From positions 11,917,262-11,981,261 of the forward strand of contig OX421962.1 in NCBI GenBank assembly GCA_949128115.1: a DNA stretch of 64,000 bases, written 5' to 3'. Every line of letters starts with the position of its first letter. Positions within the stretch are counted from its first letter, which is position 1. Below are positions 16,961 through 57,599 of the stretch, piece by piece. The notes under the pieces are model-generated. The model had not been told where the DNA came from. It saw nothing but the letters and a program-made list of their open reading frames with translations, and did no database searches. This DNA is from Anaspis maculata. Lineage: Eukaryota; Arthropoda; Insecta; Coleoptera; Scraptiidae. The translations under genes were made by a program, and so were the position numbers.

Positions 16961-19059
16961 ACTATGGACAATTAATGATTTATCATTACAGCCAATAGTT
17001 GAGTGTAGCTCTGACTTATACATTGATGATGCTGAAGAGCTTTCCGATTGTTTCAATTGATCGATCCAGTAATGCCAATAATGGCATTCTGACTCTCGTG
17101 AATCCTGCTGGACCACATCTTATTGCATCCTTCAAGCGAAGTTTGCACTTTGAGAAAATCCAATCACAGCTTTTCTCAAGGCAAGCTCAGATCTTTCAAA
17201 GTTCGACTATCCGCACAGAAAAGCTTTCCGCTCGCATGGAGCTTTTTCTCTCCTGAAAAGAAAACTGCAATTGTAACATGATGTGAGTAAGACGGGAATG
17301 TGCAGCGCATACAACGTACTTCTTACCCTTTATCTTCGGTTATCAAACAATCGGCGCGGTACCATTTCAGTGTTCTTATCATTTCCGGTGTTTTTAATCC
17401 ATAAACTAATGTTTTGTTGGTTACTTGTCGTAATTCCCGATTTTTGCAACGGAAGTTTTTGGCAAAATGCGTCGTTTCGAACTGCTTGATGGCTAAATGG
17501 AAAAAGTTACGGAAAAGATTTTTGATCGAGTGAATTTGCAAATAGGCGCGCCATAACAGATGGTCACTTGCGCATTCCATCACAAATGAAAAGCCGCCCG
17601 GCAGCTTTAAACTTCCATTTCCTCTGCGCCCTCTGGCCGGCATATGGAATATTTAATTTCTGGCGACTGCACAACACGGCCTTTTCTCTCCATCCTTCCT
17701 GATGCCGCCGGTCGGAATGACGATGGTCCGGTTTATAATTTCCGCATGGAAGAATATGCAAACTGGCCGGACGCGAGCGGCGGGAGCAGGGCATCACGCA
17801 ATATTGCAAAGGGTTCGAATTAATAATGATGGAAACAACACGGCGGCAACGACGTCTGCTCGCAGGTCCAGTTGCAACCGCACTTTCAATTATCCCGCTT
17901 CCGCCCTCCTTCCCTTTTTGCGCCCACAAATAATTGGAAGTGGAAAAACAATGGCCAGGAAGCCATATGTGTGAGTATACGTTGGCCGGACTGCGGCACA
18001 CGCACACCTTTCTCCCCATCAGTGCCAGTGTAGCTATAAAGCTCTCTAATTGATTGTGTTGGAGGGTTGCTGGAGGCTGCCAGGTGCAAAAAATAGCATT
18101 CTTTGGCGCAAAAGCTTGTGTGAGTGTGTTTTTCTAGAATCGAAATCTGTTGTAGGTGGATGTATCATTTTCCCAAAGCTTACGTAAGTTGTAAGCTCGT
18201 GTTTCTGCTGGACGAAGCCGTAATGTCAACGGTGTTATATTACATATGCTTTGCGTAAGTGCGTACAGCTTGTCTTGGGCGTCTGATGCTTGATCAGATT
18301 CCCATGTCAATTACTAGAATATGTGGATTTTATCTAACTGGTTTACCATATCTAACAAAATTATTGCCGCTAGAATTTCAATTGCGTACTTCTGTAATGA
18401 TTACGTGGTAGATCGGCGGAGTACTCATTCAGCAGTCAAGGGATGGATCATTCATCAATTGATTAAGTTAGTACTGTCACGGTACGAACCCCTTGCATCC
18501 TTTTAACCCTTCTATTGATACCCCAGGCGTGGTCGTCCAACAAAAAACAAATACATACTCAACTCTGTCTGGCCTCTCAACGGTAGATTAACACAAACAC
18601 TTGGGTGAGCTCCGCTGATAGAGCCCACCTCTTCTCTCCCTACTCAACTTTTTCACCTGAGGTACTTGAGGTCATCTTAAAGTATTGCAAAACTCCAAGT
18701 CTCAGAGGAGCTATTTTTTATTTTTATAACACAAGTGGTTTCTTTGAAAGGTTCAGCTAGCAGCCTCGAGTCCTCTCCAAAATCCTCTTCTCTCATCTCT
18801 CTCCCTTCCATTTCCGAAAATATTTCCCACCCCTGCCTATCAAAGTTACGTCAACCCTAGTGCTTGCCCAATAGCGAGCGACTCTTTCCTGCAATCGATC
18901 GTGCATTCGATTTTCCCCTCCACAGTCGATTACCAGGGTACATCCCTCGCTGGAGCAGGGCGCACGCTCTTCAAGCATTCACCGCTAGGTGTCTCCAGAT
19001 GTTTCATTTCTCCGCACCAATTGAGGCAATTACGTCATTATTTCCAATTCCTTACCTCC
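16961..19059. other. Unique DNA without recognisable gene
   Basis: No supported gene. 17,520-18,020 is G+C-richer and non-repetitive. The minus-strand frame at 17,564-18,019 (about 150 residues) has no recognisable domain and looks like chance reading of that composition. Confidence 0.4.
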
Positions 19060-22000
19060 ATCTGACTTCGAACACACTAAACTATACTAGCTTACGTTTA
19101 TAATTTCCAGGCATCTCTCGAACTTAAAACAATACCCCACTAATGTGATTTGAATCGGCTAGACTGAACTAAATGCCGTTGCATTAAAACCCGGCTTGTG
19201 TGATGTCTAATTTGCCCTTATCAAATTTCCCATCTAGTAAACATGCAAATCTGATCATTCCCCATTCACAGTGCTTTCGTACCAGAAATTCAATAATTTG
19301 TTTTTTTTCCACGGTTCGTTCGGAGCTTTTCAATAGAACACGTGTCTCAAAGATTAGATGCCTGCCCCGAGCCGGTGGTCGCAGCTCCATTCAAATCCTC
19401 TCGATTTCGGAGCTTTCCAATATAACACGTGTCTGAATGATTAGATGCCTGCCCCGAGCTGGTGGTCGCAGCTGCATTTAAACCTTCTCGATTTCTCTTT
19501 CGCTGGCCATCTCGAAACAATTCGTCATAGAAATCCCTTCACACTTTTACAGCCTCGACATCCGGTTTTTTCCATCTGACTCGAGACTCACTAGACTATA
19601 CTAGCCCACGCCCATAATTTCCAGGCATCTCTCGAACATAAAACAATACCCTATTCGTGTGATTTGAATCGGCTGGACTAAACCAAATGCCGTTGCATTA
19701 AAACCCGGCTTGTGTGATGTCCAATTTGCCCTTGTCAAATTTCCTATCCAGTAAACATGCAAATCTGATCATTGCCCATTCACAGTGCTTTCGTATCAAA
19801 AATTCAATAATTTTTTCCTCTCCCACGGTTCTTTTGGAGCTTTCCAATATAACACGTGTCTCAAAGATTAGATGCCTGTCCCGAGCCAGTGGTCGCAGCT
19901 CCATTCAAACCTTCTCGATTTCTCTTTCGCTGGCCATTTCGAAACGATTTGCCATAGAAATCTCTTCGAATTTTTACAGCCCCGACATCCGGTTTACCCA
20001 TCTGACTCCAGACTCACTAGACTATACTAGCTCACGTTCATAATTTCCAGGCATCTCTCGAACATGAAACAATACCCTACTCATGTGATTTGAATCGGCT
20101 GGACTAAACCAAATGCCGTTGCATTAAAACCCGGCTTGTGTGATGTCTAATTTGCCCTTGTCAAATTTCCTATCCAGTGAACATGCAAATCTGATTATTT
20201 TTCATTCATCAGTGCTTTTGTATCAAAAATTCAATAATTTGTTCCTTTCCCACGGTTCGTTCGGAGCTTTCCAATACAGGGTGTTTCAGGGATGATAGCA
20301 AAAAATTTAACTGTGGGTAGATCTCGTCAAAATATGACGAAAACCTATATACCATTTTGCAAAGTTTGGCCTAATGACGAAGATACAGCCCTCCAAAGTT
20401 CATTTTTTTCGGATTTCAAAATTTTCTAACTCAAGAACGTTTCGACAAATTTAGCTTCTAGTTAGCATAAGCTGGTTTGTCATAATTATCTATCAACCTG
20501 CCAAATTTGGAAGAAATTCAATCAATGGCGTAGAAGTTATGAGAGGTCACCATAAGTCAACTTTTCTTCGGAGGCTTCTAAATTATTGACCCTTATAACT
20601 CCTGAACCATTGATTGCATTCTTTCCAAATTTGGCAGGCTGATAGATCATTCTGACAAACCAGCTTCTGCTGAATTAAAGGTAAATTTGTCGGAACGTTT
20701 CTGAGTTACAAATTTTTGAAATCCGAAAAAAGTGAACTTTGGAGGGCTGTATCTTCGTCATTAGGCCGAACTTTGCAAAATGGTATATAGGTTCTCGTCA
20801 TATTTTGACGAGATCTACCCACAGTTAAATTTTTTGCTACCATCCCTGAAACACCCTGTATAACACGTGTCTCAAAGATTAGATGTCTGCCCCGAGTCGG
20901 TGGTCGCAGCTCCATTCAAACCTCGGTTTTTCTTTCGCTGGCCATCTCGAAACAATTCGTCATAGACATCCCTTCAAACTTTTACAGACCCGATATCCGG
21001 TTTTTTCCGTCCGACTCCAGACTCACTAGACTATACTAGCTCACGCCCATAATTTCCAGGCATTTCTCGAACATAAAACAATACCCTACTCATGTGATTT
21101 GAATTGGCTGGAATCAACCGAATGCCGTTGAAATCAAACCCGGCTTGTGTGATGTCTAATTTGCCCTTGTTAAATTTCCTATGCAGTAAACATGCAAATC
21201 TGATCATTCCCAATGCACAGTGCTTTTGTATCAAAAATTCAATAATTTGTTTCTTTCCCACGGTTCGTTCGGAGCTTTCCAATATAACACGTGTCTCAAA
21301 GATTAGATGCCTGCCCCGAGCCGGTGGTCGCAGCTTCATTTAAACCTTCTCGATTTTTCTTTCGCTGGCCATCTCGAAAGAATTCGTCATCGAAATCTCT
21401 TTGAACTTTTACAGTCCCGACATCCGGTTTTTCTCATCTGACTTCAGACTCACTAGACTATACTAGCTCACGCCCATAATCTCCAGGCATCTCTTGAACA
21501 TAAAACAATACCCCACCCATGTGATTTGAATCGGCTGGACTAAACCAAATGCCGTTGCAATAAAACCCGGCTTGTGTGATGTCTAATTTGCCCTTGTCAA
21601 ATTTCCTATCCAGTGAACATGCAAATCTGATCATTCCTCATTCACCAGTGCTTTCGTTTCAAAAATTCAATAATTTGTTTCTTTTCCACGGTTCGTTTGG
21701 AGCTTTCCAATATAACACGTGTCTCAAAGATTGGATGCCTGCCCCGAGCCGGTGGTTGCAGCTTCATTCAAACCTTCTCGATTCATCTTTCGCTGTCCAT
21801 CTCGAAACAATTCGCCATGAAAACCTTGGCGAACTTTCGCCACACTTTCGAACTTTTACAGCCCCGACATTCGGTTTTTCCCATCTGACTCCAGACTCAC
21901 CAGACTATACTAGCTCACGCCCATAGTTTCCAGGCATCTCTCGAACATAAAACAATACTCCACTCATGTGATTTGAATTGGCTGGACCAAATCAAATGCC

Positions 22001-22290
22001 GTTGCATTAAAACCCGGCTTGTGTGATGTCTAATTTGTCTTTGTCAAATTTCCTATCCAGTGAACATGCAAATCTGATCATTCCCCATTCACAGTGCTTT
22101 TGTATCAAAAATTCAATAATCCGTTCTCGTTCGGAGCTTTTCAATATAACACGTGTCTCAAAGATTACATGCCTGCCCCGAGCCGGTGGTCGCAGCTCCA
22201 TTCAAACCTCCCCGATTCCTCTTTTGCTGGCTATCTCGAAACAATTCATCATAGAAATCTCTTCGAACTTTTACAGCCCCGACATCCGGT
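19060..22290. repeat. ~427-bp tandem monomer array (six to seven copies)
   Basis: The phrase AACCCGGCTTGTGTGATGTC recurs with its CGGCTTGTG at about 19,192, 19,706, 20,132, 21,141, 21,569 and 22,015. Successive distances are 514, 426, 1,009, 428 and 446. The 514-bp unit contains a ~90-bp internal duplication (19,320-19,470), and the 1,009-bp unit carries the 582-bp MITE at 20,277. Corrected spacing is near 427 bp. Short frames beginning MMSNLPLSNF repeat with the monomer and are not genes. The last monomer breaks off at about 22,290 and is followed by an endonuclease-like frame, so the array may be the promoter region of a non-LTR element. Confidence 0.9.
20277..20858. mobile_element. 582-bp palindromic MITE with TA target duplication
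   Basis: The element begins CAGGGTGTTTCAGGGATG and ends with its reverse complement. The two halves are complementary over essentially their full ~285-bp length. TA flanks both ends (20,275-20,276 and 20,859-20,860), and removing element plus one TA restores the neighbouring monomer phrase TTCCAATATAACACG. TA duplication and full inverted symmetry indicate a Tc1/mariner-mobilised foldback MITE. It has no coding capacity. Confidence 0.9.
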
Positions 22291-22334
22291 TTTTTTTCTC
22301 TCAGTGGAATTCTCAGACATTACAACTTCTTGTG

Positions 22335-24742: not shown

Positions 24743-25096
24743 GAAGAGTTCCGGTTCGAGGAGCTTGTGGTGTGGTGGTTAGCGCGTTCGACTACCATTC
24801 CAGAGGTCGCGGGTTCGATCCCCGCCGGTGACGGGTTTTCGCCTCGAAAACAAGCTTCTTGGTTTAGTTGGAATGCTTGCTAAATGCAAGACGCGCCGTG
24901 TGTCGCATAGCAAGTAAAATACGAACGATGGTGCCGACCCCATGCGATGTTGGTGGTCGTTAAAAATCTACCCTGTGTTGCAACGCACAGGGATTCGGCA
25001 AAATTTCCGGTACAGTGGAGGAAAGCATTCACCGGCGTCGGTGTTAGGCCTCGTTGCGGAAATAGGCCGACATTGAATAAACGAATAAAAAAAAAC
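24743..25096 (+). mobile_element. tRNA-derived SINE with 9-bp target duplication
   Basis: TGTACGGAG stands directly before (24,734-24,742) and after (25,097-25,105) the element. Inside, a tRNA-like head carries an A box (TGTGGTGGTTAGCG near 24,770) and a B box (GGGTTCGATCCCC near 24,813). A ~260-nt unique body follows, ending in AATAAACGAATAAAAAAAAA. RNA polymerase III promoter boxes, A-tail and duplication together define a complete, fairly young SINE, 354 bp long. Confidence 0.88.
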
Positions 25097-25705: not shown

Positions 25706-27182
25706 TTAATCCTGTTCGTCCCGAATAGGCTCATCGTTACTCCCGGAGTAACGTGCAAGGCGATCAAGGTGGACAACTTTCATCTTGGCTCTCGGGGCTC
25801 GCTGGATTCTGTACACGACGTCATTGATCCTCTTGACTACCGTGTATGGTCCTTCCCACGACGAATGCAACTTCGGAGACCTTCCCTTCTTGCGTTGAGG
25901 ATTGTACAACTAGACCAGGTCACCAGCCTGAAATCCCGTGGAGTTCGCCTTCAAGTCGTAACGGATCTTCATCCGGTCGGTCGTGATTCGAATCCTGTTA
26001 CGAACCAACTCGTGGACAACTTGGTCAACAACTTGGTCGCGGCCATTCTCGGACAGCATCCAACTTTGCTGGATCGGTTTCAATTCCTTCAGAGGACACA
26101 ACGTGCCCCAAAAATTTGACTTGCTTCTGGAAGACCACGCATTTCTTTGGGTTGAGCTTGAGATGTGCACCTCGAAGACGTCGAATTACCTCCCGGAGGT
26201 TCTTCAGGTGCTCCTCGAAGGTTCGACCGATGACCATCACGTCGTCGAGGTAGACTAGGCAAGTTTCCCATGTAAGACCTCGCAAGACGCACTCCATTAG
26301 ACGTTCAAACGTGGCCGGTGCGTTGCAAAGTCCAAACGGCATCACAGTAAACTGATAAAGGCCGCTCCTAGCGGAAAACGCTGTCTTCTCTTTGTCGTCG
26401 TTGTGGAGTCCCACTTGCCAGTAACCACTCTTCAGGTCAAGCGTCGAAAACCATCTCGATCCAGACAGCGTGCTCAAAGTGTCGTCAATCCGAGGAAGTG
26501 GATAGCTGTCTTTCTTCGTCACATCATCGAGTTTGAGGTAGTCTACGCAAAATCGTGTACTACTGTCTTTCTTCGTGACCAAAACAACCGGTGAAGACCA
26601 TGGGCTCGTCGATTCTTCGATCACGCCTTCAACCAACATGTTTTTCAAGAGCTTTGACACCTCTTCTTGCTTCGCCAATGGTAGGCGCCGGGGAGCCTGT
26701 TGGATCGGTGCGGCGTTCTCAGTGTTGATCCGATGTTGGATCACGCTGGTCCTTCCGGTAGGGTTACCTTCCATGGCAAAGGCTGCAGCTTCTTCCTGTA
26801 TGAATTGCATCGCAAGCTCTCTCTCCTTGCCATCCAGATGTTTCCAGTCAGGCGAGAACATCTCCACTAGCTTTTTCTCCAAGAGCTTGGGAGTCGCAGC
26901 CTTTGTCGATATGTCTTCACAGCGTGAGATCCTTTCTACGGGTTCACACTTGCCCAGGGTCTCTCCTTCCTTGATTGTTTTGCTCGTCTTGTTCGGGTTA
27001 ATGACTCTGATCGGGATTTTTGTCCTGTCCATGTTAATCAATGTCTTAGCCATGATGCAGCTGGCAGCTGTGTCGGGTGCAGCAATGCCGGCGACATGTC
27101 CTTCAGGTTGTCCGTTCAGTGTTGCCCACACGATTTTCTCGGAGTTGGCGGCTACACGAACGGTTTTAGCCGTAAGTAGCAT
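25706..27182 (-). pseudogene. Gypsy-type pol with internal deletion (protease-linker, RT, integrase tail)
   Basis: A 385-residue open frame (27,182 down to 26,025) holds the region before RT and a complete RT core: SPWSSPVVLV, WFSTLDLKSGYWQV (first Asp), CLVYLDDVMVIG (YxDD), KFLGHVVSSEG. At about 26,040 the sequence jumps from the RT end (AVREWPRP) directly into the end of an integrase: HELVRNRIRI, AGDLV, then LYNPQRKKGRSPKLHSSWEG and PYTVVKRINDVVYRIQ, a GPY/F-like tail. RNase H and the integrase zinc finger and catalytic core are therefore deleted. A TAG replaces the usual Trp after AGDLV near 25,908. RT is intact-looking but the element cannot be autonomous. Confidence 0.88.
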
Positions 27183-28253: not shown

Positions 28254-28259
28254 AACACG
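28254..28259. repeat. Target-site duplication AACACG, left of palindrome
   Basis: AACACG directly precedes the left terminus AGTAGGTAAAG and is repeated at 39,178-39,183 directly after the right terminus CTTTACCTACT. Confidence 0.9.
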
Positions 28260-28300
28260 AGTAGGTAAAGCGTCGGTTGAGCCAGACGTTTCTAGGGACT

Positions 28301-28548
28301 TTTATCTGGTGACTTTTGGTTGGCAACACTGAATCTAGTGACTTTTTTGACAGGTCGTTAAGCATTGGATCTGCATTACCGGCATTTGACAGGTGGCGCG
28401 GGAAATTTGAAAAGTTTTTAGTTTATCTGGTGACTTTTGGTTATTATCACTGAATCTAGTGACTTTTTTGACTGATCGTCAAGCATTTATTCTGTATTAC
28501 CGGCATTTGACATGTGGGGGATTTTAACGTGCGGGAAATTTGAAAAGT
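28301..28548. repeat. Sub-terminal direct repeats of the palindrome (left; mirrored right)
   Basis: Two ~125-bp copies start TATCTGGTGACTTTTGGTT and end GCGGGAAATTTGAAAAGT. Their mirror images stand at about 38,889-39,136. They may serve as transposase sites, which is inference. Confidence 0.8.
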
Positions 28549-28839
28549 ACGTGGAATTTGGATTTGACAGGCTAGGTCACAGATTGTGTTTGGCAGGAGA
28601 CATTTGTTAGCTTGAAAGCGCGGGATGTTTGAATTCCCTATACCTACTAAAGCACTCCTCATTGTATCTTAACCCTTGCAAACTCTCAAGTGGTTTGGTT
28701 TCAATAGTTATTTTTGGTATATAAACGCAAGCAAATAGAACCATTTTATTGACAGACCAATATACTGTGCTAGTTACATAGACAATAATTTCATACAGTT
28801 CAGGGTAAGACCTCAACATCATGATTTATTCGTAGTTTA

Positions 28840-29790
28840 ATTCACATAACTGCTTACATAGACAATTATATTAAATTCAAAATAAAGCACAAACAGGTGA
28901 TCATAAACAAATTTACAGTATTGATTATACATACAAACATTGAAATCGAAGTACGTTCGATAAAATTTCTTAGTTGCTTACATAGACAATTACGTCAAAT
29001 TAAAATAAGGCACAAACAAGTGATCGTGAACGATTTTTCATAGCTGAGTATACAGGCATCAACTACCTATAATCGAAAAACATCTGATACATGTTCTTAG
29101 TTGCTTACATAGACAATTACGTGAAACTTAAAATAAGGTACAAACAGGTGAGCATGAATGACTTTTCATAGCTAAGTATACAGACATTATTCACTTGAAA
29201 TCGAAGTACATTTGATACAATTTCCCAGCTGATTACCGCATACCATTACATGAAATTTAAAATAAGGCACAAACAGGTGATAATAAACAAATTTACATAG
29301 TTGATTATACATAGAAGATATGCACACGAACATAAAATCGAAGTACATTTGACTATTTCTTAGTTGATTACATAATATACAATTACATGAAATTCAAAAT
29401 AGGGCACGAAGAGGTGATCATAAACAAATTTACAGTGTTGAATAATACAAACTTGAATTACTCAAAATCGAAGTACATTCAATACAATTTCTTAGTTACT
29501 TACATAGGCAATTACGCGAAATTCAAATAAGGCCAAAACAGGTGTTCATGAGCGATTTTTATAGCTGATTACACAAACATTGAATACTTTAAAATAGGAG
29601 TAGGTACTTTTAATACAATTTCTTAGTTGATTATACCATATAAAATTATTTGATATTTGAATTAAGGCACAAAAAAATTATAATAAACGAATTTATAGGG
29701 TTGATCACACAAATATCAATGACCTGAAATCGAGGTACATTTTTAATACAATTTCTCAGTACAAACATCATTCACCCAAAGTCGAAGTAC
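28840..29790. repeat. ~129-bp tandem repeats, left arm
   Basis: About seven diverged units share ATAAGGCACAAACAGGTGAT and GAAATCGAAGTACATTTGA, at 28,885, 29,008, 29,137, 29,266, 29,403, 29,530 and 29,665, with spacing 123-137 bp. The mirrored array occupies about 37,650-38,600 in the right arm. Confidence 0.85.
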
Positions 29791-29943
29791 ACTTAACACG
29801 ACAACTTGATGGTCGGCAGTTCTGATGTGCCGGTCGCGAGGCAGAATGTTGGAATCATCATCATTATTGACAACAATTAACTCCTTCATGGAGCCAAAAT
29901 TGAGTAGCTTGGAATTCTTATAGCTCAGTTTTATTATTTTCAC
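29743..29943 (-). other. Mirrored 66-residue frame in palindrome arms
   Basis: The frame beginning MKIIKLSYKNSKLLNFGSMK occurs here and, unchanged, at 37,477-37,677 (+). It ends inside the 129-bp repeat array. No recognisable domain; there is no independent sign that it is translated. Confidence 0.25.
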
Positions 29944-30342
29944 TTTGCAAACGACATCACTTCTATTCTCGGGCGCTGGGAAGGCGAAGGGCCCACTGTT
30001 GGCTCTTAGAGAGAATCGTTGATAGTGTGAATTCAGTAACTGGATCAGGTTGACAGTATAATTCTAGTTATTGTAGTTGTGATGAGAACATTCCAGGTGA
30101 GTACTACAAAAAAAAAAATCAAAAATTGTATGTTATGTCTAACAGGATATTATAATACAAGTTTCATAAGACATAGTATTGTTGGGGGGTACGGAAAATG
30201 AACGAGTGAATATGCCTCCACGACCGTGAGGCTTATTGTTTGTAGGTATATGCATTTCAACTACCTGAGAAGTCGCACCCAAAATAACGGCTCTTGCCAA
30301 CAGGGAATTGGTTGAAGGCCTTTTTTCTTATAATTTATAAGG

Positions 30343-30759
30343 TTATGACAGTATTACGGGAGCATAATTATTGGAAATAAAACATGCTAATTGTCGCAAG
30401 GCCCTTAAGGTCGTGAGTGGCGTGACAATATCCACCATGTAAACCGTGGTAATAAGTTTGAATTTGAACAATCTATACTGTTTATCCGCGTTACCAGTCT
30501 TTTTTCCATCAACTGTAGTCATTCCACAGAGTTTTAACAAGAGATTGATTTTTTTTTTTTCAATAAAGTTTGACCATCGAATCTGTGGGTGATTTTTTTT
30601 TGCATAAGCATGAGACATTACATTGGAAAAGATCGATGGAATTGGCTTAGCTTTGCGTGGGGTAGGTATAATATACAGCGAGCCGCGGCTTTGCAGTCGT
30701 TTCCAAAAATCCGGAACTATCGACCAGGGGCCTGTATCGAAATAGAATTTTTTTGTCAA
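30343..30759 (-). other. Mirrored 138-residue frame of unknown function in palindrome arms
   Basis: The longest frame of the palindrome starts MTKKFYFDTGPWSIVPDFWK and runs 138 codons. In the right arm (36,662-37,077) the same sequence is split in two by a different length of an A/T homopolymer and has one Asn-to-Tyr change. It shows no motif I recognise, no signal peptide and no zinc ligands. It may be a decayed exon of a protein once carried by the element, or chance. Confidence 0.3.
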
Positions 30760-32155
30760 AAGAAAGTTAAATTTTTTTCTAAATATAACCCGTACATATA
30801 GTAATGTGTTTCCATAAGAATATGTACTTAAATAAATGAATTGTCCGCATAAACATAGTGAAAATTAAACTTACACGAAAAACACAAACACGGCACAGCA
30901 CCAACCCATGAGGCTGCTAGATAACGAATGCAAACGCACCACCACCACCTGTCGACTGGGTGGTTGTTCGTAACTTCTTACCTGAAAAGCCCTGAGCTAT
31001 TAATTTTTTTTTACCTGAAAGATCGTGTCTGAACAGGAATTTTTAGTATCATATGCACATTTTCACGGAGCCACCAGATAATCAATAATTATTATATAAA
31101 TAGAAACTTTATTTAAAAATTACTTTGTGCTTATCACATAATGCTCCGACTTGAAAAATATCAGCGCTGAATTTTGTCAGTCCAGTACGGCAATGTAAAA
31201 ATAAAAAAATATAAAAGATATAAGTATTTAGGAGCTCAATGTGTTGAAAAGATGTTTTAATAAAAACTATCAACATATAGACAAATTTACATAAAAATAC
31301 CTAATGTTTTTCAATGCTCAAAGGTATTAGCCTAAAATGTTACCGATTATCGATTGCATTGAGTACACCTGCCTACTGAAATTTTTCAAGTACCTGAGGG
31401 TCTAATATAAACGACTCTAGCAAGCCAGCATTTTATGAGAATTTTCTACTTGACCGACCTTGAATTTTCAATAAATACCCTTTGATTACCAGGTTGAGAA
31501 AGAACGAATGAATACGAGAGGTAGCCAGTAGTGTAGGTAGCGCGACCGAAGAAATTAACAAGAGAGTTTTGCAGCATTGCCCACCCGCTGACGAGTGCTC
31601 TTCAAGCTACAAATATCTCCGGATCAAATATGTACCAAGCCATATGCGTAGTATCAGAATGGTGCATCTTAATACTTAACTCGGCCCTTTCAGGATGTAC
31701 CTATGGGAGAAGTTTGTGCAAATAAAAATACGCACTAGTTATTGGTTACAGCTTTGTTCATTTCAGATTTTTGAACAGTTCCATACTCCTATCCTTACCT
31801 TAGATATGAAAGATTTTATTGTATCTATCTATGTACTAACAAGACTCTAAGAATTTTCATTCACATGTTCGAAAATATTTGCAGTCATTTCTTACAATAA
31901 TTGAAGGGTTTGACTGTCGAAGAGACAAATATGGTTTCGCCAGCTAATGATGTTGGATATAAGAATCCAAGCTCGCATAGAAGGTCGAACGCAACCCGTT
32001 GACGCCTCTAATATTATTATCCCACTTTCTCGTCGTCTTCCTTCCAATAAAAGTACCTCACCAACATTAGCACTTTTGGAAGTTTTTAAATACACTAACT
32101 TATCTGTAACTGCGCCTGGGTCGGTAGGACAGCCATATTCTTCATTTTTTTCAAT

Positions 32156-32485
32156 TCACTGAAATTCTTTCTCACTTCTTTTGAGGCTGGAACCTAACTT
32201 GGAGAGATTTCTATAGGTCCTTATTGGTGCAGATTGACCTTTTGTCGAGAATCCAAATCGGTAGCAAGAAGCATCATGGACAAAGTCGTCATCACTCATT
32301 TCATCATCCATTGTCTCACCGCTGTCCGTCGTTTTCAGATTTTGAGAGAAGGTTACTTCTAATTGATAAGATCTCGAGTGTATTGCAGATGTAGATGAAC
32401 TGGTTCCGCACCTACGACATTGGAATTTTTTTTGTGTCCATACTTGTTTTGTTGAAGATATGTTAGCTCGGGACATATTCTTCAA
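32156..32485 (-). other. Mirrored 109-residue frame of unknown function in palindrome arms
   Basis: The frame starting MKNMSRANISSTKQVWTQKK is present in both arms (right copy 34,936-35,265), with a Glu-to-Gly change near its end. It has one CxxC pair (CRRC), an acidic stretch (MDDEMSDDDF) and a basic C-terminus. A CRRC plus acidic pattern is not enough to name a family. The frame stays open in both arms. Confidence 0.3.
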
Positions 32486-32873
32486 GAAAACTGAGCTATT
32501 TTCAATATTTTGTAGGATATATGCGATGGCAGGGCCTTCTTCTCTTTAGTTTCTCGCACCAAGCGTGCTAACATAGACTTTAAAATACCGAAAACTCGGG
32601 CACTTGTTCTAACCTAGGTCTCTCGAAGGACTTTAGTTATAGCGCTTTGAATTTTTTCGGAAATATTTCTTTTGCTTTCTGCAGCTCTACCTTCTATCGT
32701 TATCAAAAGCTCGATCATTTCTGGATATTTTGCTCCCGCTCATTCAAATATACAGATACTCTTCATTTCACGTTTTACTTATCTCAGCATGATGAATAAT
32801 CTCACCATTATTTTGTCTCCATCGATTGTCCCCTTTCAGTGTCCACTTCAATGTCACCTTTGTACTCTTCAAT

Positions 32874-32956
32874 TGTCCCTAACGTGTCCCTAACGTGTCT
32901 CTAACGTGTCTCTAACGTGTCCCTAACGTGTCTCTAACGTGTCCCTAACGTGTCCC
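32874..32956. repeat. 11-bp CCCTAACGTGT array A (left arm)
   Basis: Seven or eight units of C(C/T)CTAACGTGT. Related arrays: B at 33,327-33,452, C at 33,985-34,091 and D at 34,466-34,548 (C and D in reverse complement). A mirrors D and B mirrors C. Confidence 0.9.
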
Positions 32957-33057
32957 CTATGTCACTTCCAATGTCCCATATGTCCCATGTGTCTCCTTCA
33001 ATTGTCTGTTTGTCAATTAAATGATTCAATTTGCTTGTGTTTATACCGTGTCACAAT

Positions 33058-33248
33058 GATCAGGTCAGGAGTATAGAGACTTAGCGGTTGAAGCATGACG
33101 ACTCGGCGGGCAGAGCATGACGACTCAAAAGGCCGACGTATGCAGACTTTGCCAGTGGACAGCGTATAGCTAGAAGTTCTAGTAGTCATGCTCTGTCTGC
33201 CAAGTCGTCATGCTTTAACCGCTAAGTCTCTATACTCCTAACCTGATC
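33058..33248. repeat. 191-bp hairpin unit 1 near the palindrome centre
   Basis: AGGAGTATAGAGACTTAGCG at the left pairs with CGCTAAGTCTCTATACTCCT at the right. The stem is about 60 bp with mismatches and the loop about 60 nt. Copies stand at 33,554-33,744 (same orientation, in the loop) and 34,173-34,363 (right arm). Confidence 0.85.
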
Positions 33249-33326
33249 CTCCTCACCATTATTTTGTCTCCATCGATTGTCCCCTCTCAGTGTCCACTTC
33301 AATGTCACCTTTGTACTCTTCAATTG

Positions 33327-33452
33327 TCCCCTAACGTGTCCCTAACGTGTCCCTAACGTGTCCCTAACGTGTCCCTAACGTGTCTCTAACGTGTCCCTAA
33401 CGTGTCTCTAACGTGTCCCTAACGTGTCTCTAACGTGTCCCTAACGTGTCCC
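33327..33452. repeat. 11-bp CCCTAACGTGT array B
   Basis: About eleven units, the inner edge of the left arm. They mirror array C, where the right arm begins. Confidence 0.9.
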
Positions 33453-33984
33453 CTATGTCACTTCCAATGTCCCATATGTCCCATGTGTCTCCTTCAATTG
33501 TCTGTTTGTCAATTAAATGATTCAATTTGCTTGTGTTTATACCGTGTCACAATGATCAGGTCAGGAGTATAGAGACTTAGCGGTTGAAGCATGACGACTC
33601 GGCGGGCAGAGCATGACGACTCAAAAGGCCGACGTATGCAGACTTTGCCAGTGGACAGCGTATAGCGAGAAGTTCTAGTAGTCATGCTCTGTCTGCCAAG
33701 TCGTCATGCTTTAACCGCTAAGTCTCTATACTCCTAACCTTATCACTTGTGCTGTCGCTATCAGCATAGGCCGGCAACTAGGAGTTAACGTTATAGGCTG
33801 TTCGCTAGGACTTGTCGGTATACGCTGGTCTCTAGCAGTGACTGCGTTTCGATCGCAGCTTTCAATCTGCTTGAGTTTCGATCGGGTCCAGAGTGGCTTC
33901 AGTCAAGCGCATTTTTAGTCAAGCGCGTTTTTATCGCCGCACGTTCGATCCGCTTCACTCAAGTTAGGGAACACGTTAAAGTAC
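33453..33984. other. Loop (spacer) of the giant palindrome
   Basis: Contains a duplicated unit of the left arm (33,453-33,553 plus hairpin unit 2 at 33,554-33,744) without a partner in the right arm. A 240-bp unique part follows (33,745-33,984), with TTTCGATCG-type motifs and two tandem CAGTCAAGCGCATTTTTA-like phrases. Confidence 0.8.
33554..33744. repeat. Hairpin unit 2
   Basis: Nearly identical to unit 1 (33,058-33,248). It differs at GCGAGAAGTTCTAG versus GCTAGAAGTTCTAG and at its last bases. Confidence 0.85.
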
Positions 33985-34091
33985 ACGTTAGGGACACGTT
34001 AGGGACACGTTGGGGACACGTTAGGGACACGTTAGGGACACGTTAGGGACACGTTAGGGACACGTTAGGGACACGTTAGGGACACGTTAGG
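33985..34091. repeat. 11-bp ACACGTTAGGG array C (right arm)
   Basis: Reverse complement of array B; about nine units, one with a G substitution (ACGTTGGGG). It marks the inner edge of the right arm. Confidence 0.9.
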
Positions 34092-34172
34092 GGACAATTG
34101 AAGAGTACAAAGGTGACATTGAAGTGGACACTGAGAGGGGACAATCGATGGAGACAAAATAATGGTGAGGAG

Positions 34173-34363
34173 GATCAGGTTAGGAGTATAGAGACTTAGC
34201 GGTTAAAGCATGACGACTTGGCAGACAGAGCATGACTACTAGAACTTCTCGCTATACGCTGTCCACTGGCAAAGTCTGCATACGTCGGCCTTTTGAGTCG
34301 TCATGCTCTGCCCGCCGAGTCGTCATGCTTCAACCGCTAAGTCTCTATACTCCTGACCTGATC
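34173..34363. repeat. Hairpin unit 3 (right arm)
   Basis: Inverted partner of hairpin unit 1, embedded in the right arm at the mirrored position. Confidence 0.85.
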
Positions 34364-34465
34364 ATTGTGACACGGTATAAACACAAGCAAATTGAATCAT
34401 TTAATTGACAAACAGACAATTGAAGGAGACACATGGGACATATGGGACATTGGAAGTGACATAGG

Positions 34466-34548
34466 GGACACGTTAGGGACACGTTAGAGACACGTTAGAG
34501 ACACGTTAGAGACACGTTAGAGACACGTTAGGGACACGTTAGGGACAA
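34466..34548. repeat. 11-bp ACACGTTAGGG array D (right arm)
   Basis: Mirror image of array A at 32,874-32,956. Confidence 0.9.
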
Positions 34549-37500
34549 TTGAAGAGTACAAAGGTGACATTGAAGTGGACACTGAAAGGGGACAATCGAT
34601 GGAGACAAAATAATGGTGAGATTATTCATCATGCTGAGATAAGTAAAACGTGAAATGAAGAGTATCTGTATATTTGAATGAGCGGGAGCAAAATATCCAG
34701 AAATGATCGAGCTTTTGATAACGATAGAAGGTAGAGCTGCAGAAAGCAAAAGAAATATTTCCGAAAAAATTCAAAGCGCTATAACTAAAGTCCTTCGAGA
34801 GACCTAGGTTAGAACAAGTGCCCGAGTTTTCGGTATTTTAAAGTCTATGTTAGCACGCTTGGTGCGAGAAACTAAAGAGAAGAAGGCCCTGCCATCGCAT
34901 ATATCCTACAAAATATTGAAAATAGCTCAGTTTTCTTGAAGAATATGTCCCGAGCTAACATATCTTCAACAAAACAAGTATGGACACAAAAAAAATTCCA
35001 ATGTCGTAGGTGCGGAACCAGTTCATCTACATCTGCAATACACTCGAGATCTTATCAATTAGAAGTAACCTTCTCTCAAAATCTGAAAACGACGGACAGC
35101 GGTGAGACAATGGATGATGAAATGAGTGATGACGACTTTGTCCATGATGCTTCTTGCTACCGATTTGGATTCTCGACAAAAGGTCAATCTGCACCAATAA
35201 GGACCTATAGAAATCTCTCCAAGTTAGGTTCCAGCCTCAAAAGAAGTGGGAAAGAATTTCAGTGAATTGAAAAAAATGAAGAATATGGCTGTCCTACCGA
35301 CCCAGGCGCAGTTACAGATAAGTTAGTGTATTTAAAAACTTCCAAAAGTGCTAATGTTGGTGAGGTACTTTTATTGGAAGGAAGACGACGAGAAAGTGGG
35401 ATAATAATATTAGAGGCGTCAACGGGTTGCGTTCGACCTTCTATGCGAGCTTGGATTCTTATATCCAACATCATTAGCTGGCGAAACCATATTTGTCTCT
35501 TCGACAGTCAAACCCTTCAATTATTGTAAGAAATGACTGCAAATATTTTCGAACATGTGAATGAAAATTCTTAGAGTCTTGTTAGTACATAGATAGATAC
35601 AATAAAATCTTTCATATCTAAGGTAAGGATAGGAGTATGGAACTGTTCAAAAATCTGAAATGAACAAAGCTGTAACCAATAACTAGTGCGTATTTTTATT
35701 TGCACAAACTTCTCCCATAGGTACATCCTGAAAGGGCCGAGTTAAGTATTAAGATGCACCATTCTGATACTACGCATATGGCTTGGTACATATTTGATCC
35801 GGAGATATTTGTAGCTTGAAGAGCACTCGTCAGCGGGTGGGCAATGCTGCAAAACTCTCTTGTTAATTTCTTCGGTCGCGCTACCTACACTACTGGCTAC
35901 CTCTCGTATTCATTCGTTCTTTCTCAACCTGGTAATCAAAGGGTATTTATTGAAAATTCAAGGTCGGTCAAGTAGAAAATTCTCATAAAATGCTGGCTTG
36001 CTAGAGTCGTTTATATTAGACCCTCAGGTACTTGAAAAATTTCAGTAGGCAGGTGTACTCAATGCAATCGATAATCGGTAACATTTTAGGCTAATACCTT
36101 TGAGCATTGAAAAACATTAGGTATTTTTATGTAAATTTGTCTATATGTTAATAGTTTTTATTAAAACATCTTTTCAACACATTGAGCTCCTAAATACTTA
36201 TATCTTTTATATTTTTTTATTTTTACATTGCCGTACTGGACTGACAAAATTCAGCGCTGATATTTTTCAAGTCGGAGCATTATGTGATAAGCACAAAGTA
36301 ATTTTTAAATAAAGTTTCTATTTATATAATAATTATTGATTATCTGGTGGCTCCGTGAAAATGTGCATATGATACTAAAAATTCCTGTTCAGACACGATC
36401 TTTCAGGTAAAAAAAAATTAATAGCTCAGGGCTTTTCAGGTAAGAAGTTACGAACAACCACCCAGTCGACAGGTGGTGGTGGTGCGTTTGCATTCGTTAT
36501 CTAGCAGCCTCATGGGTTGGTGCTGTGCCGTGTTTGTGTTTTTCGTGTAAGTTTAATTTTCACTATGTTTATGCGGACAATTCATTTATTTAAGTACATA
36601 TTCTTATGGAAACACATTACTATATGTACGGGTTATATTTAGAAAAAAATTTAACTTTCTTTTGACAAAAAAATTCTATTTCGATACAGGCCCCTGGTCG
36701 ATAGTTCCGGATTTTTGGAAACGACTGCAAAGCCGCGGCTCGCTGTATATTATACCTACCCCACGCAAAGCTAAGCCAATTCCATCGATCTTTTCCAATG
36801 TAATGTCTCATGCTTATGCAAAAAAAAATCACCCACAGATTCGATGGTCAAACTTTATTGAAAAAAAAAAATCAATCTCTTGTTAAAACTCTGTGGAATG
36901 ACTACAGTTGATGGAAAAAAGACTGGTTACGCGGATAAACAGTATAGATTGTTCAAATTCAAACTTATTACCACGGTTTACATGGTGGATATTGTCACGC
37001 CACTCACGACCTTAAGGGCCTTGCGACAATTAGCATGTTTTATTTCCAATAATTATGCTCCCGTAATACTGTCATAACCTTATAAATTATAAGAAAAAAG
37101 GCCTTCAACCAATTCCCTGTTGGCAAGAGCCGTTATTTTGGGTGCGACTTCTCAGGTAGTTGAAATGCATATACCTACAAACAATAAGCCTCACGGTCGT
37201 GGAGGCATATTCACTCGTTCATTTTCCGTACCCCCCAACAATACTATGTCTTATGAAACTTGTATTATAATATCCTGTTAGACATAACATACAATTTTTG
37301 ATTTTTTTTTTTGTAGTACTCACCTGGAATGTTCTCATCACAACTACAATAACTAGAATTATACTGTCAACCTGATCCAGTTACTGAATTCACACTATCA
37401 ACGATTCTCTCTAAGAGCCAACAGTGGGCCCTTCGCCTTCCCAGCGCCCGAGAATAGAAGTGATGTCGTTTGCAAAGTGAAAATAATAAAACTGAGCTAT

Positions 37501-37649
37501 AAGAATTCCAAGCTACTCAATTTTGGCTCCATGAAGGAGTTAATTGTTGTCAATAATGATGATGATTCCAACATTCTGCCTCGCGACCGGCACATCAGAA
37601 CTGCCGACCATCAAGTTGTCGTGTTAAGTGTACTTCGACTTTGGGTGAA

Positions 37650-38600
37650 TGATGTTTGTACTGAGAAATTGTATTAAAAATGTACCTCGATTTCAGGTCA
37701 TTGATATTTGTGTGATCAACCCTATAAATTCGTTTATTATAATTTTTTTGTGCCTTAATTCAAATATCAAATAATTTTATATGGTATAATCAACTAAGAA
37801 ATTGTATTAAAAGTACCTACTCCTATTTTAAAGTATTCAATGTTTGTGTAATCAGCTATAAAAATCGCTCATGAACACCTGTTTTGGCCTTATTTGAATT
37901 TCGCGTAATTGCCTATGTAAGTAACTAAGAAATTGTATTGAATGTACTTCGATTTTGAGTAATTCAAGTTTGTATTATTCAACACTGTAAATTTGTTTAT
38001 GATCACCTCTTCGTGCCCTATTTTGAATTTCATGTAATTGTATATTATGTAATCAACTAAGAAATAGTCAAATGTACTTCGATTTTATGTTCGTGTGCAT
38101 ATCTTCTATGTATAATCAACTATGTAAATTTGTTTATTATCACCTGTTTGTGCCTTATTTTAAATTTCATGTAATGGTATGCGGTAATCAGCTGGGAAAT
38201 TGTATCAAATGTACTTCGATTTCAAGTGAATAATGTCTGTATACTTAGCTATGAAAAGTCATTCATGCTCACCTGTTTGTACCTTATTTTAAGTTTCACG
38301 TAATTGTCTATGTAAGCAACTAAGAACATGTATTAGATGTTTTTCGATTATAGGTAGTTGATGCCTGTATACTCAGCTATGAAAAATCGTTCACGATCAC
38401 CTGTTTGTGCCTTATTTTAATTTGACGTAATTGTCTATGTAAGCAACTAAGAAATTTTATCGAACGTACTTCGATTTCAAGTAATTTTAGTAATCAATGT
38501 TTGTATGTATAATCAATACTGTAAATTTGTTTATGATCACCTGTTTGTGCTTTATTTTGAATTTAATATAATTGTCTATGTAAGCAGTTATGTGAATTAA
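37650..38600. repeat. ~129-bp tandem repeats, right arm
   Basis: Mirror of the left array at 28,840-29,790. It carries the only notable indel between the arms, a 16-17-bp insertion at about 38,478-38,494. Confidence 0.85.
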
Positions 38601-39177
38601 ACTACGAATAAATCATGATGTTGAGGTCTTACCCTGAACTGTATGAAATTATTGTCTATGTAACTAGCACAGTATATTGGTCTGTCAATAAAATGGTTCT
38701 ATTTGCTTGCGTTTATATACCAAAAATAACTATTGAAACCAAACCACTTGAGAGTTTGCAAGGGTTAAGATACAATGAGGAGTGCTTTAGTAGGTATAGG
38801 GAATTCAAACATCCCGCGCTTTCAAGCTAACAAATGTCTCCTGCCAAACACAATCTGTGACCTAGCCTGTCAAATCCAAATTCCACGTACTTTTCAAATT
38901 TCCCGCACGTTAAAATCCCCCACATGTCAAATGCCGGTAATACAGAATAAATGCTTGACGATCAGTCAAAAAAGTCACTAGATTCAGTGATAATAACCAA
39001 AAGTCACCAGATAAACTAAAAACTTTTCAAATTTCCCGCGCCACCTGTCAAATGCCGGTAATGCAGATCCAATGCTTAACGACCTGTCAAAAAAGTCACT
39101 AGATTCAGTGTTGCCAACCAAAAGTCACCAGATAAAAGTCCCTAGAAACGTCTGGCTCAACCGACGCTTTACCTACT

Positions 39178-39580
39178 AACACGCCTACCACTGGCGAAGC
39201 AGGAAGAAGCCTCAAGTTTTTAAACATGTTGGACCACAGTGTCGTAGAGGAATCCACGAGCCCGTGGTCGTGATCGCTCGTTTTATAGTGACTAAAAAGA
39301 TGACAGTGTCCGTTTCTTTGTGGGTTACTGGTAACTCAACGATGCCTCAATGTCACCAAGAAGGACAGCTATCCTCTGGCACGCATTGATGACACGTTGA
39401 CTACCTTGTTTGGATCTGAGTGATTCCCGACGTTTGACTTTTAGAGTGACCATTGGAAAGTTGGATTTCATCCAGAGGACAAAGAAAAGAGCGCATTCTC
39501 CGTCGGAAATTAATCGTATCAGTTCTCTGTCATGTCTTTTGGGTTCTGTAATGCACCGGCTACGAATCAAAAAACACTGA
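39178..39580 (+). pseudogene. Gypsy-type RT relic, right of the palindrome
   Basis: After the second AACACG the pol frame continues with RLPLAKQEEA, as in the intact frame at 25,706-27,182. It then gives decayed RT phrases: VRFCVGYW near 39,310, a disrupted catalytic-Asp block near 39,425 and FGFCNAPAT-like codons at 39,540-39,565. Stops and frame changes are frequent. The match to the left flank shows that the palindrome was inserted into this pol. Confidence 0.75.
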
Positions 39581-50799: not shown

Positions 50800-51954
50800 T
50801 GGCCATTCTTCCGATGTCGCGAAATTGATGTACTTTCCGTTGTGGTTGTATTCTGGAGAAATAGTAGTTACTTTCTGAGCTACTCTGGATAAGCAATCAG
50901 CTACGGGGTTGTTCTTTCCCTTAATATACTGGATCTGGTATAGTCTATCTGATTTCTACATGATTCTAGTGGGCTGCGATTCAGGCCGCAATCGGCCGAT
51001 GGCGACCAGAAACACAGCTCACTCGAATCATTTAGAAATCAGACAGCCTATAGTTGAAGTTTGATAAATACGCCGCCCATCTCTGCAGTCTGCTGGCGTA
51101 CATAAAAGGAATGCCTTTATGTTCCCCGAGCAGAGCTAATAGAGGCTTGTGGTCAGTCTTCAAGGTCTATTTATGTCCGTATAAGTACTGGTGGAACTTT
51201 GTTACACCAAAGTATATGGCAAGTGCTTCTTTATGTACCACGGGGTAGTTTTTCTCTGATGGCATCAACGTTCTTGATACACAGCCCACCGTTTTCTCCT
51301 CTCCGTTAACAACATGGCTCAATACCGCTGATATTCCGTCTGCTGATGCGTCGGTAGTCAGGACAATTGGCGTATTTGGGTTGAAATGCACTAAACAAGC
51401 GTCGGAAGCTAATATATTCTTGATCTCTTCGAACGATCTCTGACATTCTCGGCTCCATTTGCATTCTTCTGTCTTCGATAACAAATTGTAGATGATTTTC
51501 AAGATCTGCGCCAAATTTGGTACGAATCTAGAATAATAATTCACCATTCCGCAAAACGATCTAACTTGTGTTATCGTTGACGGTTCTGGGGCGTAAATAA
51601 TTGCCAGCACCTTATCGTCCGTCTTCCTCAAACCTTTCTTCGAGATAATATGACTCATATATTCCACTTCTTCTTGAAAGAATTTGCATTTTTCAGGTGT
51701 GTATCTTGGTTCGCGCCAGTGATCAGGATATGATCAGGATATCGTCAAGAAAATCACGACATTATCCATTCTGGTGAATAATTGTTCCAGGTACTTTTGA
51801 AATCTAGCACTAGCTGGAGAAATTCCAAACGGCATCCGGTTAATGGTGAATAATCCTCGATGTGTATTCGAGGTAAGTAGTTTTTTCGCTTCGTCATCCA
51901 ATTCAAATTGAGTGTATGCTTGATTCAGGTCAATTTTTGGAAAATATTCATCTA
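50800..51954 (-). pseudogene. RT C-terminal half and RNase H of second gypsy-type pol
   Basis: From 51,954 the RT frame reads YFPKIDLNQAYTQFEL (first Asp), FTINRMPFGISPASARF, then a one-base shift at the catalytic pair so that FLDD falls in a neighbouring frame, with a short tandem duplication (GATCAGGATAT twice). The next frame (51,667-51,167) runs MSHIISKKGLRKTDDK, CGMVNYYSRFVPNLAQ and the RNase H start VLTTDASADGISAVL, ending LYGHK. A further piece to ~50,890 (NNPVADCLSRVAQKV) closes RNase H. Confidence 0.85.
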
Positions 51955-52156
51955 CAGGGTGATTCATGAGTGACCTTACATAGGCTAATGGGAGATAGAG
52001 GACTTCGAGGCGAGTCAGGATCCACTGAGGAATTTTTTTTCTCCATTGGTCACGAAGATACAGGGTGTTTTGTGTGTTTCGTGTGAAACTTTGATCAGCG
52101 ATATTTCTGAAACGGCTGAAGATATTGTGTTGAAATTTACCAGTAATATTTCTCTG

Positions 52157-52669
52157 CTGTGCGGGGAGCACGCCGTCTGTTTACGAATTTCGTATTCGAA
52201 GCTTGCGTATTTTCTATTGTATAAACTTGCGTATTCTCGTTCGTCTTTGCAATCGGAAACGATCGTAAGAAGTCGTGCCCGTGGATGAAGGCCGCCATAT
52301 TGCTAAAATTTCAGCGACGAGGAGGGAAGATGCAGATACATCATGCTAGACAAAGACAAGAAAGATCGACACTTTACGCAAAACCCAATGTTTTCGTGTT
52401 TGTACGAAGCTTGCGGGCTGTGCATAGGCACGGCTGTGGGTAGGATACGCAAGTGGCTGGTCGATTTCTACGAAATACGAAAGTGGCGTGCTCGCAAGAT
52501 TCAGATACGAAAACGAACTTCGTAACCGTTTGAACGCATGCTCTGCACGGAGCAGAAGACGCAAGGGATTGGGCGATATCCACTATTTACGAAACATGAT
52601 AGTGGCGTGCTGGCAAAATTCGTATACGAACACGAATTTCGTAACCGATTGACGGCGTGCTCCCACCAC
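52157..52669. mobile_element. ~513-bp inverted-repeat insertion in the left arm
   Basis: Absent from the equivalent point of the right arm (phrase ATTTCTCTG/TTGGAACTCA near 60,305). Its ends carry the inverted GGGAGCACGCCGTC, and a CGAATTTCGTA(T/A)-type repeat fills the interior. CAGTGGTGGGAGCACG at one end recalls hAT termini, but no 8-bp duplication is visible. Confidence 0.65.
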
Positions 52670-53221
52670 TGGAACTTATCCAGAAGTCATACCGGGTGAG
52701 TCAAAATCCAGGGCCGGAATTGAAAAACTGTGCCCCTTTTTTATTTGATCATTAAGTACATTTTCTGTCCGCTTTTCTGGAAAACTGTTGTCGGATTCGA
52801 AAAGCTAAGGAAAAATGCTTTAAGAATCACTCTTCAATTTAGATGGCACACCTAGACCGTTTCGACAAAAAAATTAAAAGTAATATTTGTGGGTAAGTTT
52901 CCATTTTTGACCGGACATAATCGACTCATTGTTTGATTGAATTCATTAAAATTCATTTTTCAGCTTGTCTCTGTGGAACAGAAGGGCTTGGTAGTAATAG
53001 TCCGGACGTTAGGCGATAAAATATGGGTGGACTCTGCATTTTAGGGTTAAAACATGCCACTTGGTATAGTTGTTGCATGAACCATAATCTTCCGATTCAG
53101 AAGTGTAGACATCAGCAGCAGACGTGCAGGCTCTCTGTACAGGGTGAAGAAGGAAAAAGAAGAAGGAAACGTGGTAACTCATAAACCAAAAGAGGTAGAG
53201 TCGTGTAAATCGACATATATA

Positions 53222-57003: not shown

Positions 57004-57599
57004 TGAAGATGAACTTATGTGAGTGATTCAAGGATATTTTCATATCCCTCGTGTCTAACGGTGTTTCCTTTTTTAGTCGCAGCCGAAGAGTATTTTGCGG
57101 AGAGACCCGAAGGCAGTTCCTAGTTACACTTTTACTTGGTTTGAGGTGACTAGTGACGTGGCGCACTAACCGAGGAAGAACGAGTGCTTTACGTGTCCTC
57201 CGAGACACGAAGACAAGCGAGTTGGCTATTTTTGCGTGAGACTCTAGGCGCGGGCGTATCTCCAACTTGAAATTAAGTCCATAGTTCCGGCTACGCTTGC
57301 TCTATAGGTAAACCGCAGTGGAAGTCTGGTGTACACAATGGTGGCGGTCAATGGAAATCACATGGAAGTCAGTAGAAGTTACGTGGAAATCAGTGGAAGT
57401 CTTGTCTACAAAATTTTTGCTGTCTTTGACCGCGCCGAGTTTGAAAGCAACTGAAAGTTAAAACTGGGCTGTACCAATTTTTTTCGCTACTGATAGTATA
57501 ACTCTATCGATTTTATGGAAACATTGTTTTCAATTGTAAACATTTTGTCACAATAAAGAAAAACTCCATCCGAAGTTATGAACTTGATTCTTTCTTTCA

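What the first reader, a model, noticed from the sequence alone, without database searches (positions are those of the whole stretch)
28260..39177. A 10.9-kb near-perfect palindrome that moved as a unit (giant foldback transposon with 6-bp target duplication)
Two ~5.2-kb inverted arms with very few differences, termini AGTAGG...CCTACT, and AACACG duplicated exactly at both edges. The flanks are two halves of one gypsy pol frame. A 6-bp duplication plus AG/CT ends are what I know of Polinton/Maverick elements, but no Polinton gene is visible. This may be an undescribed non-autonomous, almost fully palindromic derivative or a new class. Arms this similar imply recent formation or continuing gene conversion.
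Basis: partly seen in the sequence, partly recalled or inferred. Interest (0 to 1): 0.9.

Follow-up and report, generated by a model that had tools for sequence, protein, structure and literature searches.

The report
Giant palindromic Polinton-like jumping DNA
This 10,918-letter stretch of DNA, almost a perfect palindrome, is one of many inserted copies of a mobile element whose end pattern is shared by elements in the same genome that carry a Polinton-type DNA polymerase, and it is likely copied by that polymerase through a form that folds back on itself.

Summary
Window 28260-39177 is two ~5.2 kb inverted arms (99.4% identical), ends AGTAGG...CCTACT, with AACACG duplicated at both edges inside an old gypsy frame.

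The host assembly (758 Mb, unnamed) shows a family. All 17 copies with both ends among the 40 scored matches (window plus 16) have perfect, all different 6-bp duplications. The pattern AGTAGGTA-N9-TTGAGCC occurs 187 times (backward control: 1).

The genome also holds many Polinton-type DNA polymerase B genes. Of 71 merged polB loci, 15 neighbouring pairs are inverted (0.08 expected). All 7 pairs whose ends I read are bounded by AGTAGGTA ends and 6-bp duplications; the one read further (C9) is a giant palindrome. Four elements with a single polB also have the pattern at both ends, two of them with exactly the end of non-coding copies.

Arms evolve together: 68 changes are private to a copy but shared by both its arms, 38 are private to one arm.

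I read it as a gene-less member of a clan of palindromic Polintons, likely replicated by polB supplied in trans. No integrase was found.

The parts
28254..28259 (.). left copy of the 6-bp target duplication AACACG
28260..33455 (+). left arm of the palindrome
   Evidence: self-BLAST; differences listed
28260..28283 (+). terminus AGTAGGTA-N9-TTGAGCC, left
   Evidence: one search lists it at G000:C2:11945521-11945544
28301..28517 (+). two subterminal 96-bp repeats with GTGACTTTT motifs (28301-28396, 28422-28517)
28851..29760 (+). 128-bp tandem repeats of the left arm
32801..33751 (+). central modules: 11-bp minisatellite (TGTCCCTAACG) and ~200-bp near-palindrome, in two copies on this side
33749..33962 (+). 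214-bp central spacer, not mirrored in this copy but present on both sides in several others
33965..39177 (-). right arm of the palindrome
37660..38586 (-). 128-bp tandem repeats of the right arm (7.0 copies)
39154..39177 (-). terminus AGTAGGTA-N9-TTGAGCC, right
   Evidence: one search lists it at G000:C2:11956415-11956438
39178..39183 (.). right copy of the 6-bp target duplication AACACG
26025..27182 (-). uninterrupted gypsy reverse-transcriptase frame, used as a stand-in for the empty site

Best explanation
The 10,918-bp palindrome is one copy of a transposon family with AGTAGGTA...TACCTACT ends and 6-bp target duplications, carries no recognisable gene, and is likely a non-autonomous member of a clan of palindromic Polintons, replicated and integrated by proteins supplied in trans. 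Shown: the family, its duplications and termini; elements in the same genome with a Polinton-type DNA polymerase B between the same kind of termini, often one polB on each side in inverted order; arms more alike within a copy than between copies. Inferred: protein-primed polB copies the element from its ends by strand displacement; each displaced single strand of a palindrome folds into a duplex hairpin kilobases long; differences between the arms become mismatches that repair can erase; a retrovirus-type integrase inserts the duplex with a 6-bp duplication. Also inferred: the palindromes arose from one end of an ordinary Polinton by fold-back or template switching, and the window family lacks polB by loss.
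For: 17 of 17 paired copies with perfect, different 6-bp duplications. 187 exact matches of AGTAGGTA-N9-TTGAGCC, backward control 1; 42 +/- pairs among 100 listed termini. 15 inverted neighbouring polB pairs among 71 merged loci, 0.08 expected. 7 of 7 polB pairs whose ends were read have AGTAGGTA ends and 6-bp duplications. 10 of the 42 paired-terminus elements contain polB, two of them with the CGGGGTCAG terminus found on non-coding copies. Arms: 68 copy-private states shared by both arms against 38 private to one arm; the other arm of the same copy is the single closest sequence in 11 of 15 copies. Vertebrate Mavericks have (AGT)2//(ACT)2 ends and 6-bp duplications (PMC8097293, passages).
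Against: No integrase, capsid or protease gene was found in any of these elements; the rve search scored 150 of 4,180 candidates and none of the 150 lies in the four single-polB elements (by eye), and the protease search is uninformative. Beyond the termini the window element and the polB palindromes share only weak similarity (5-11 of 300 shuffles score as high). 25 of the 42 polB loci entered for C1-C4 are not inside pattern-paired termini. In one copy (C3:20.3) one arm is closer to other copies than to its partner. The 129-aa frame is open in 11 of 16 copies, so a small gene is not fully excluded. Ordinary chromosomal gene conversion could also make arms alike.
Confidence: 0.78

Rival explanations
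1. It is a classical foldback-type cut-and-paste transposon (Galileo/P, Mutator or another DDE superfamily) whose inverted repeats grew by recombination; the polB elements only look similar at their ends.
For: Long, internally repetitive inverted repeats with gene-less copies are typical of Galileo and other foldback elements (PMC3573991, passages).
Against: Duplications are 6 bp in 17 of 17 copies, while Galileo is bounded by 7-bp sequences. polB, not a transposase, lies at a near-constant distance from the same termini (1,984-1,992 bp in four elements; coordinates). No transposase domain in the frames tested.
Confidence: 0.12
2. The family and its polB relatives are as described, but the arms are kept alike by ordinary chromosomal gene conversion between inverted repeats after insertion, not by a hairpin stage in replication.
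For: Gene conversion between nearby inverted repeats is common (recalled) and would give the same shared-private changes.
Against: Several copies have identical arms over ~1.86 kb although they differ from every other copy (C4:4.91, 0 against 18 or more differences), which fits a reset at insertion; but this does not exclude conversion.
Confidence: 0.3
3. Assembly or sequencing artefact, for example a missed-adapter palindrome.
For: Such artefacts make near-perfect palindromes (recalled); reads were not available.
Against: An adapter artefact would also mirror the flanks and would not create exact 6-bp duplications at 24 separate sites; arms carry private differences and centres differ between copies.
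Confidence: 0.02

Closest known systems
Polinton/Maverick self-synthesizing transposons (polintoviruses)
   Same: 6-bp duplications, AG...CT ends close to the (AGT)2//(ACT)2 of vertebrate Mavericks (PMC8097293, passages), inverted terminal repeats, and relatives with polB of the Pfam family PF03175 in the same genome.
   Different: The window element has no polB, integrase or capsid gene detected; nearly the whole element is inverted repeat; polB-carrying relatives often have one polB on each side.
Galileo and other foldback transposons
   Same: Very long inverted repeats with internal tandem repeats and gene-less copies (PMC3573991, passages).
   Different: 7-bp instead of 6-bp boundaries; P-type transposase; inverted repeats up to about 1.25 kb there against 5.2 kb here.
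Symmetric palindromic defective genomes of protein-primed linear viruses (adenovirus, phi29-like; recalled, no paper read)
   Same: One end of a linear protein-primed genome mirrored into a palindrome with two origins.
   Different: Those are by-products of infection; here palindromes are chromosomal, inherited and high in copy number.
Bidnaviruses
   Same: Linear replicons thought to have taken polB and terminal repeats from a Polinton (PMC4061559, passages).
   Different: Independent viruses with capsid genes; not inserted palindromes.

Membership tests
Polinton/Maverick | 6-bp target site duplication | tested here: met
   17 of 17 paired copies; 7 of 7 polB pairs read
Polinton/Maverick | AG...CT termini, in vertebrates (AGT)2//(ACT)2 | tested here: met
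   AGTAGG...CCTACT; the second triplet is AGG, not AGT; reference motif from PMC8097293
Polinton/Maverick | long terminal inverted repeats | tested here: met
   5.2-kb arms in the window copy
Polinton/Maverick | protein-primed DNA polymerase B in the element | tested here: not met
   not in the window element; present in relatives with the same kind of termini. So the window copy is filed as a non-autonomous relative
Polinton/Maverick | retrovirus-type (rve) integrase | tested here: inconclusive
   none in the window element; genome search scored 150 of 4,180 candidates; single-polB elements could not be read
Polinton/Maverick | capsid, ATPase and protease genes | tested here: inconclusive
   protease PF00770: no match, also none in 14 controls, so uninformative; capsid and ATPase not searched
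Galileo (P superfamily foldback) | 7-bp target duplication | tested here: not met
   6 bp in 17 of 17; 7 bp from PMC3573991
Galileo (P superfamily foldback) | P-type transposase in longer copies | not tested
   not searched in the genome; the longest copy fetched (17.1 kb) holds a frame with retrotransposon gag in its right half

The most novel reading that the evidence does not exclude
A self-complementary branch of Polintons: whole elements that are palindromes, with polB on both sides or lost, living as hairpin-forming protein-primed replicons in which each round of copying lets the arms mend each other, so that the element is proofread against its own other half and persists as an inherited, integrating counterpart of a defective viral palindrome.
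Probability: 0.45. Interest if true: 0.88.

Novelty: new variant of a known kind. Interest (0 to 1): 0.78.

Why it matters
How Polintons replicate is largely inferred from their genes. A genome with inverted polB elements and gene-less palindromic followers with the same ends is a natural record of such copying: arm identity, centre structure and target duplications can be compared across many copies. It is also a case where concerted evolution inside one element can be set against insertion age, and a mobile source of 10-20 kb chromosomal inverted repeats. In an open-access library, six exact phrases for palindromic or non-autonomous Polintons/Mavericks occur in 0 papers, and no title or abstract start listed describes one; texts of those listings were mostly not read, and subscription papers and Repbase were not searched.

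Tried and rejected
Coding content of the arms. Ten frames against Pfam: one frame (129 aa) had three matches, all under their cut-offs (best DUF5830, E 0.0035), nine had none. PDB: one match at E 1.6. Protein database: 4 candidates, none at E <= 1. Viral contigs: none. Plasmids and phages: no match. Across copies the 129-aa frame is open in 11 of 16, and its codon changes are 13 silent and 25 replacing (5 gapped rows dropped; related copies repeat the same changes); the 109-aa frame is gapped in every other copy; the 106-aa frame gave 3 silent and 2 replacing. The row orf82m there was read in the wrong sense and is not used. I claim no gene, but the open 129-aa frame is told against that.

The 17.1-kb copy (C3:5503705) was tried as a possible complete element; its right half holds a 978-aa frame with retrotransposon gag, so a nested insertion explains the excess.

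Window element against polB elements beyond the ends: scores 26-27 against shuffled means near 20, with 5, 11, 6 and 10 of 300 shuffles as high. Relatedness therefore rests on termini, duplications and palindromy.

Protease and integrase searches did not settle the helper question. The last 159 codons of one polB found no relatives in viral contigs, no Pfam family and nothing credible in PDB. Literature searches on adenovirus palindromes and snap-back protein-primed DNA gave nothing used; that parallel is recalled. A search with a gypsy gag gave 6 distant proteins and did not name the host.
Full report
Observation. Window 28260-39177 is an inverted repeat of two arms, 28260-33455 and 33965-39177, 99.367% identical over 5,214 columns. 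Outside the central repeat modules (left arm 28260-32873) the arms differ by 5 substitutions, a 17-bp indel and a 1-bp indel. The ends read AGTAGGTAAAGCG and its mirror image, and AACACG stands at both edges. With one AACACG removed, the flanks align with no gap at the junction to the uninterrupted gypsy reverse-transcriptase frame at 26025-27182(-) of the same window. The identity is 68%, so this is an old paralogue and not an allele; a genome search for a closer empty site did not complete.

Anatomy. From the end inwards each arm has two subterminal 96-bp repeats with GTGACTTTT motifs, about seven 128-bp tandem repeats, about 3 kb without repeats, and near the centre an 11-bp minisatellite and a ~200-bp near-palindrome. 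The 214-bp spacer 33749-33962 is not mirrored in this copy. No tested frame has a family match over its cut-off. Frames vary between copies without a clear sign of protein constraint, though the 129-aa frame is open in 11 of 16 copies.

It is a family. The host assembly has 757,842,296 bases in 50 contigs and is unnamed; the window is C2:11917262-11981261. The terminal 261 bp gave 40 scored matches of 295 candidates: 34 form 17 inverted pairs (the window and 16 others) and 6 are ends whose partner was not among the 40. I fetched all 16 other pairs and the 6 single ends. All 17 pairs have perfect 6-bp duplications and AGTAGGTA ends. Arms pair over several kilobases in most copies, with interruptions in some that look like nested insertions or deletions; in two copies (C3:5.50 and C2:87.6) the longest arm match is only 1.6 and 2.1 kb. 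A 2-kb query from a close relative gave 40 scored matches of 564 candidates, all 99-100% identical over the full 2 kb, so at least one subfamily spread recently. The centres hold the same modules in different order and orientation.

A wider clan with polymerase. A Pfam PF03175 search (DNA_pol_B_2, the protein-primed type of Polintons) returned 158 matches, with 84 of 275 candidates scored, and none in 14 control genomes. From the listed rows, which were cut short, I entered coordinates that merge to 71 loci: 15 neighbouring pairs are inverted and within 25 kb, against 0.08 expected for random placement, and 13 of the 15 face outward. I read the ends of 7 of the 15 pairs. All 7 have AGTAGGTA ends and perfect 6-bp duplications: TATTTT, TATTGT, CTTCTG, AACAGA, AACCTG, CGTGAG and AACGGG; lengths are 10,598-20,587 bp. 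In six of them only the outer 361-544 bp were read: the two ends are 100% identical over the shared part in five and 93% in the sixth. Full palindromy of these six is inferred from the inverted polB pair and the matching ends. The seventh, C9:5022375-5037172, was read further: its outer 1,026 columns are 99.9% identical between arms and its central 5.9 kb are self-complementary at 99.4%; the stretch that holds polB was not read. In what was read of it, the longest frame apart from the end of polB is 120 aa. Of the other 8 pairs, 4 lie between paired termini and 4 were not examined.

The link to the window family. AGTAGGTA-N9-TTGAGCC occurs 187 times exactly; the pattern read backwards occurs once. 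Of 100 rows listed (contigs C1-C4), 84 form 42 +/- pairs of 7,285-19,718 bp, median 10.8 kb; 16 are unpaired. Ten of the 42 contain polB: six with two or more, four with one. Of the 42 polB loci entered for C1-C4, 17 lie inside such pairs and 25 do not; some of the 25 sit in elements whose terminus reads TTGTGCG (C2:119.87 and C3:28.47), one (C2:4.32) has an unpaired terminus, and the others are unexamined. Matched letters were shown for C1 and C2: 18 of 18 pairs there have the same nine variable letters at both ends. Two polB elements, C1:25179192 and C1:136299061, have the CGGGGTCAG terminus; single ends and pairs of the non-coding family show the same CGGGGT(CAG) end. Subtracting coordinates, the polB match edge lies 1,992, 1,989, 1,990 and 1,984 bp from the terminus in the four single-polB elements (the last match runs two model positions further), so polB is a fixed part of them.

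Arms evolve together within a copy. In an alignment of 32 of 34 arms (1.64-1.87 kb each; two were dropped for incomplete coverage), arms of the same copy differ at 0-12 positions while copies differ by up to 3.6%. In the 15 copies with both arms, 68 positions carry a state private to the copy and shared by both arms, 38 carry a state private to one arm, and at 5 the arms differ by states seen elsewhere. The other arm of the same copy is the single closest sequence in 11 of 15 copies; three copies belong to a group of identical sequences, and in C3:20.3 one arm is closer to other copies. If arms were inherited side by side without exchange, shared-private states should be rare.

How it likely works (inferred). 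In protein-primed replication a strand is displaced from end to end (recalled). The displaced strand of a normal Polinton pairs only at its ends; that of a palindrome folds into a duplex hairpin over nearly its whole length. Arm differences become mismatches, and repair makes the arms alike. Copying through the hairpin returns a full palindrome with two origins. A retrovirus-type integrase would insert it with a 6-bp duplication. The C9 polB element shows no integrase-sized frame in what was read apart from polB, and the window family lacks polB too, so a chain of dependence is likely. Ordinary chromosomal conversion could also keep arms alike; I give it 0.3.

Comparison with the known. Vertebrate Mavericks have 5'-(AGT)2//(ACT)2-3' ends, inverted repeats and 6-bp duplications (PMC8097293, passages). 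Polinton-like viruses with rve integrase typically give 6-bp duplications (PMC12220804, passages). Polintons encode a Gypsy-like integrase (PMC2836005, passages). Galileo is the nearest foldback look-alike but is bounded by 7-bp sequences (PMC3573991, passages). The window element itself fails the polB criterion, so it is filed as a non-autonomous relative.

Limits. No reads, no second species, host unnamed, integrase not found, single-polB elements not read, and no polB palindrome read in full. The genome search scores only the best candidates, so copy counts are lower bounds. Absence from print rests on the open-access library only (titles and abstract starts; six phrases, 0 papers).

Noticed in passing
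window 51947-60523: A second, nested set of inverted repeats (51947-52159 with 60309-60523, 52670-52992 with 59990-60310, 53031-53219 with 58458-58646), perhaps another foldback-like element with insertions inside.
   Followed up: partly
window 54970-58468: A 347-aa Tc1/mariner-type transposase frame (55960-57003, DDE_3) lies between inverted repeats of about 860 bp, long for such an element.
   Followed up: partly
window 19057-22295: Large array of repeats, partly inverted around 20274-20861.
   Followed up: no
L060 (C3:28465143): Another AGTAGGTA end with a different continuation stands about 400 bp outside the polB element at C3:28465540; perhaps a further subfamily.
   Followed up: no
G000 C4:74176959-74194594: A paired-terminus element of 17.6 kb with three merged polB loci, two in the same direction.
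   Followed up: no
window 24766-24827: tRNA-like match just over Rfam's cut-off (29.8 against 29 bits) that ARAGORN does not call.
   Followed up: no
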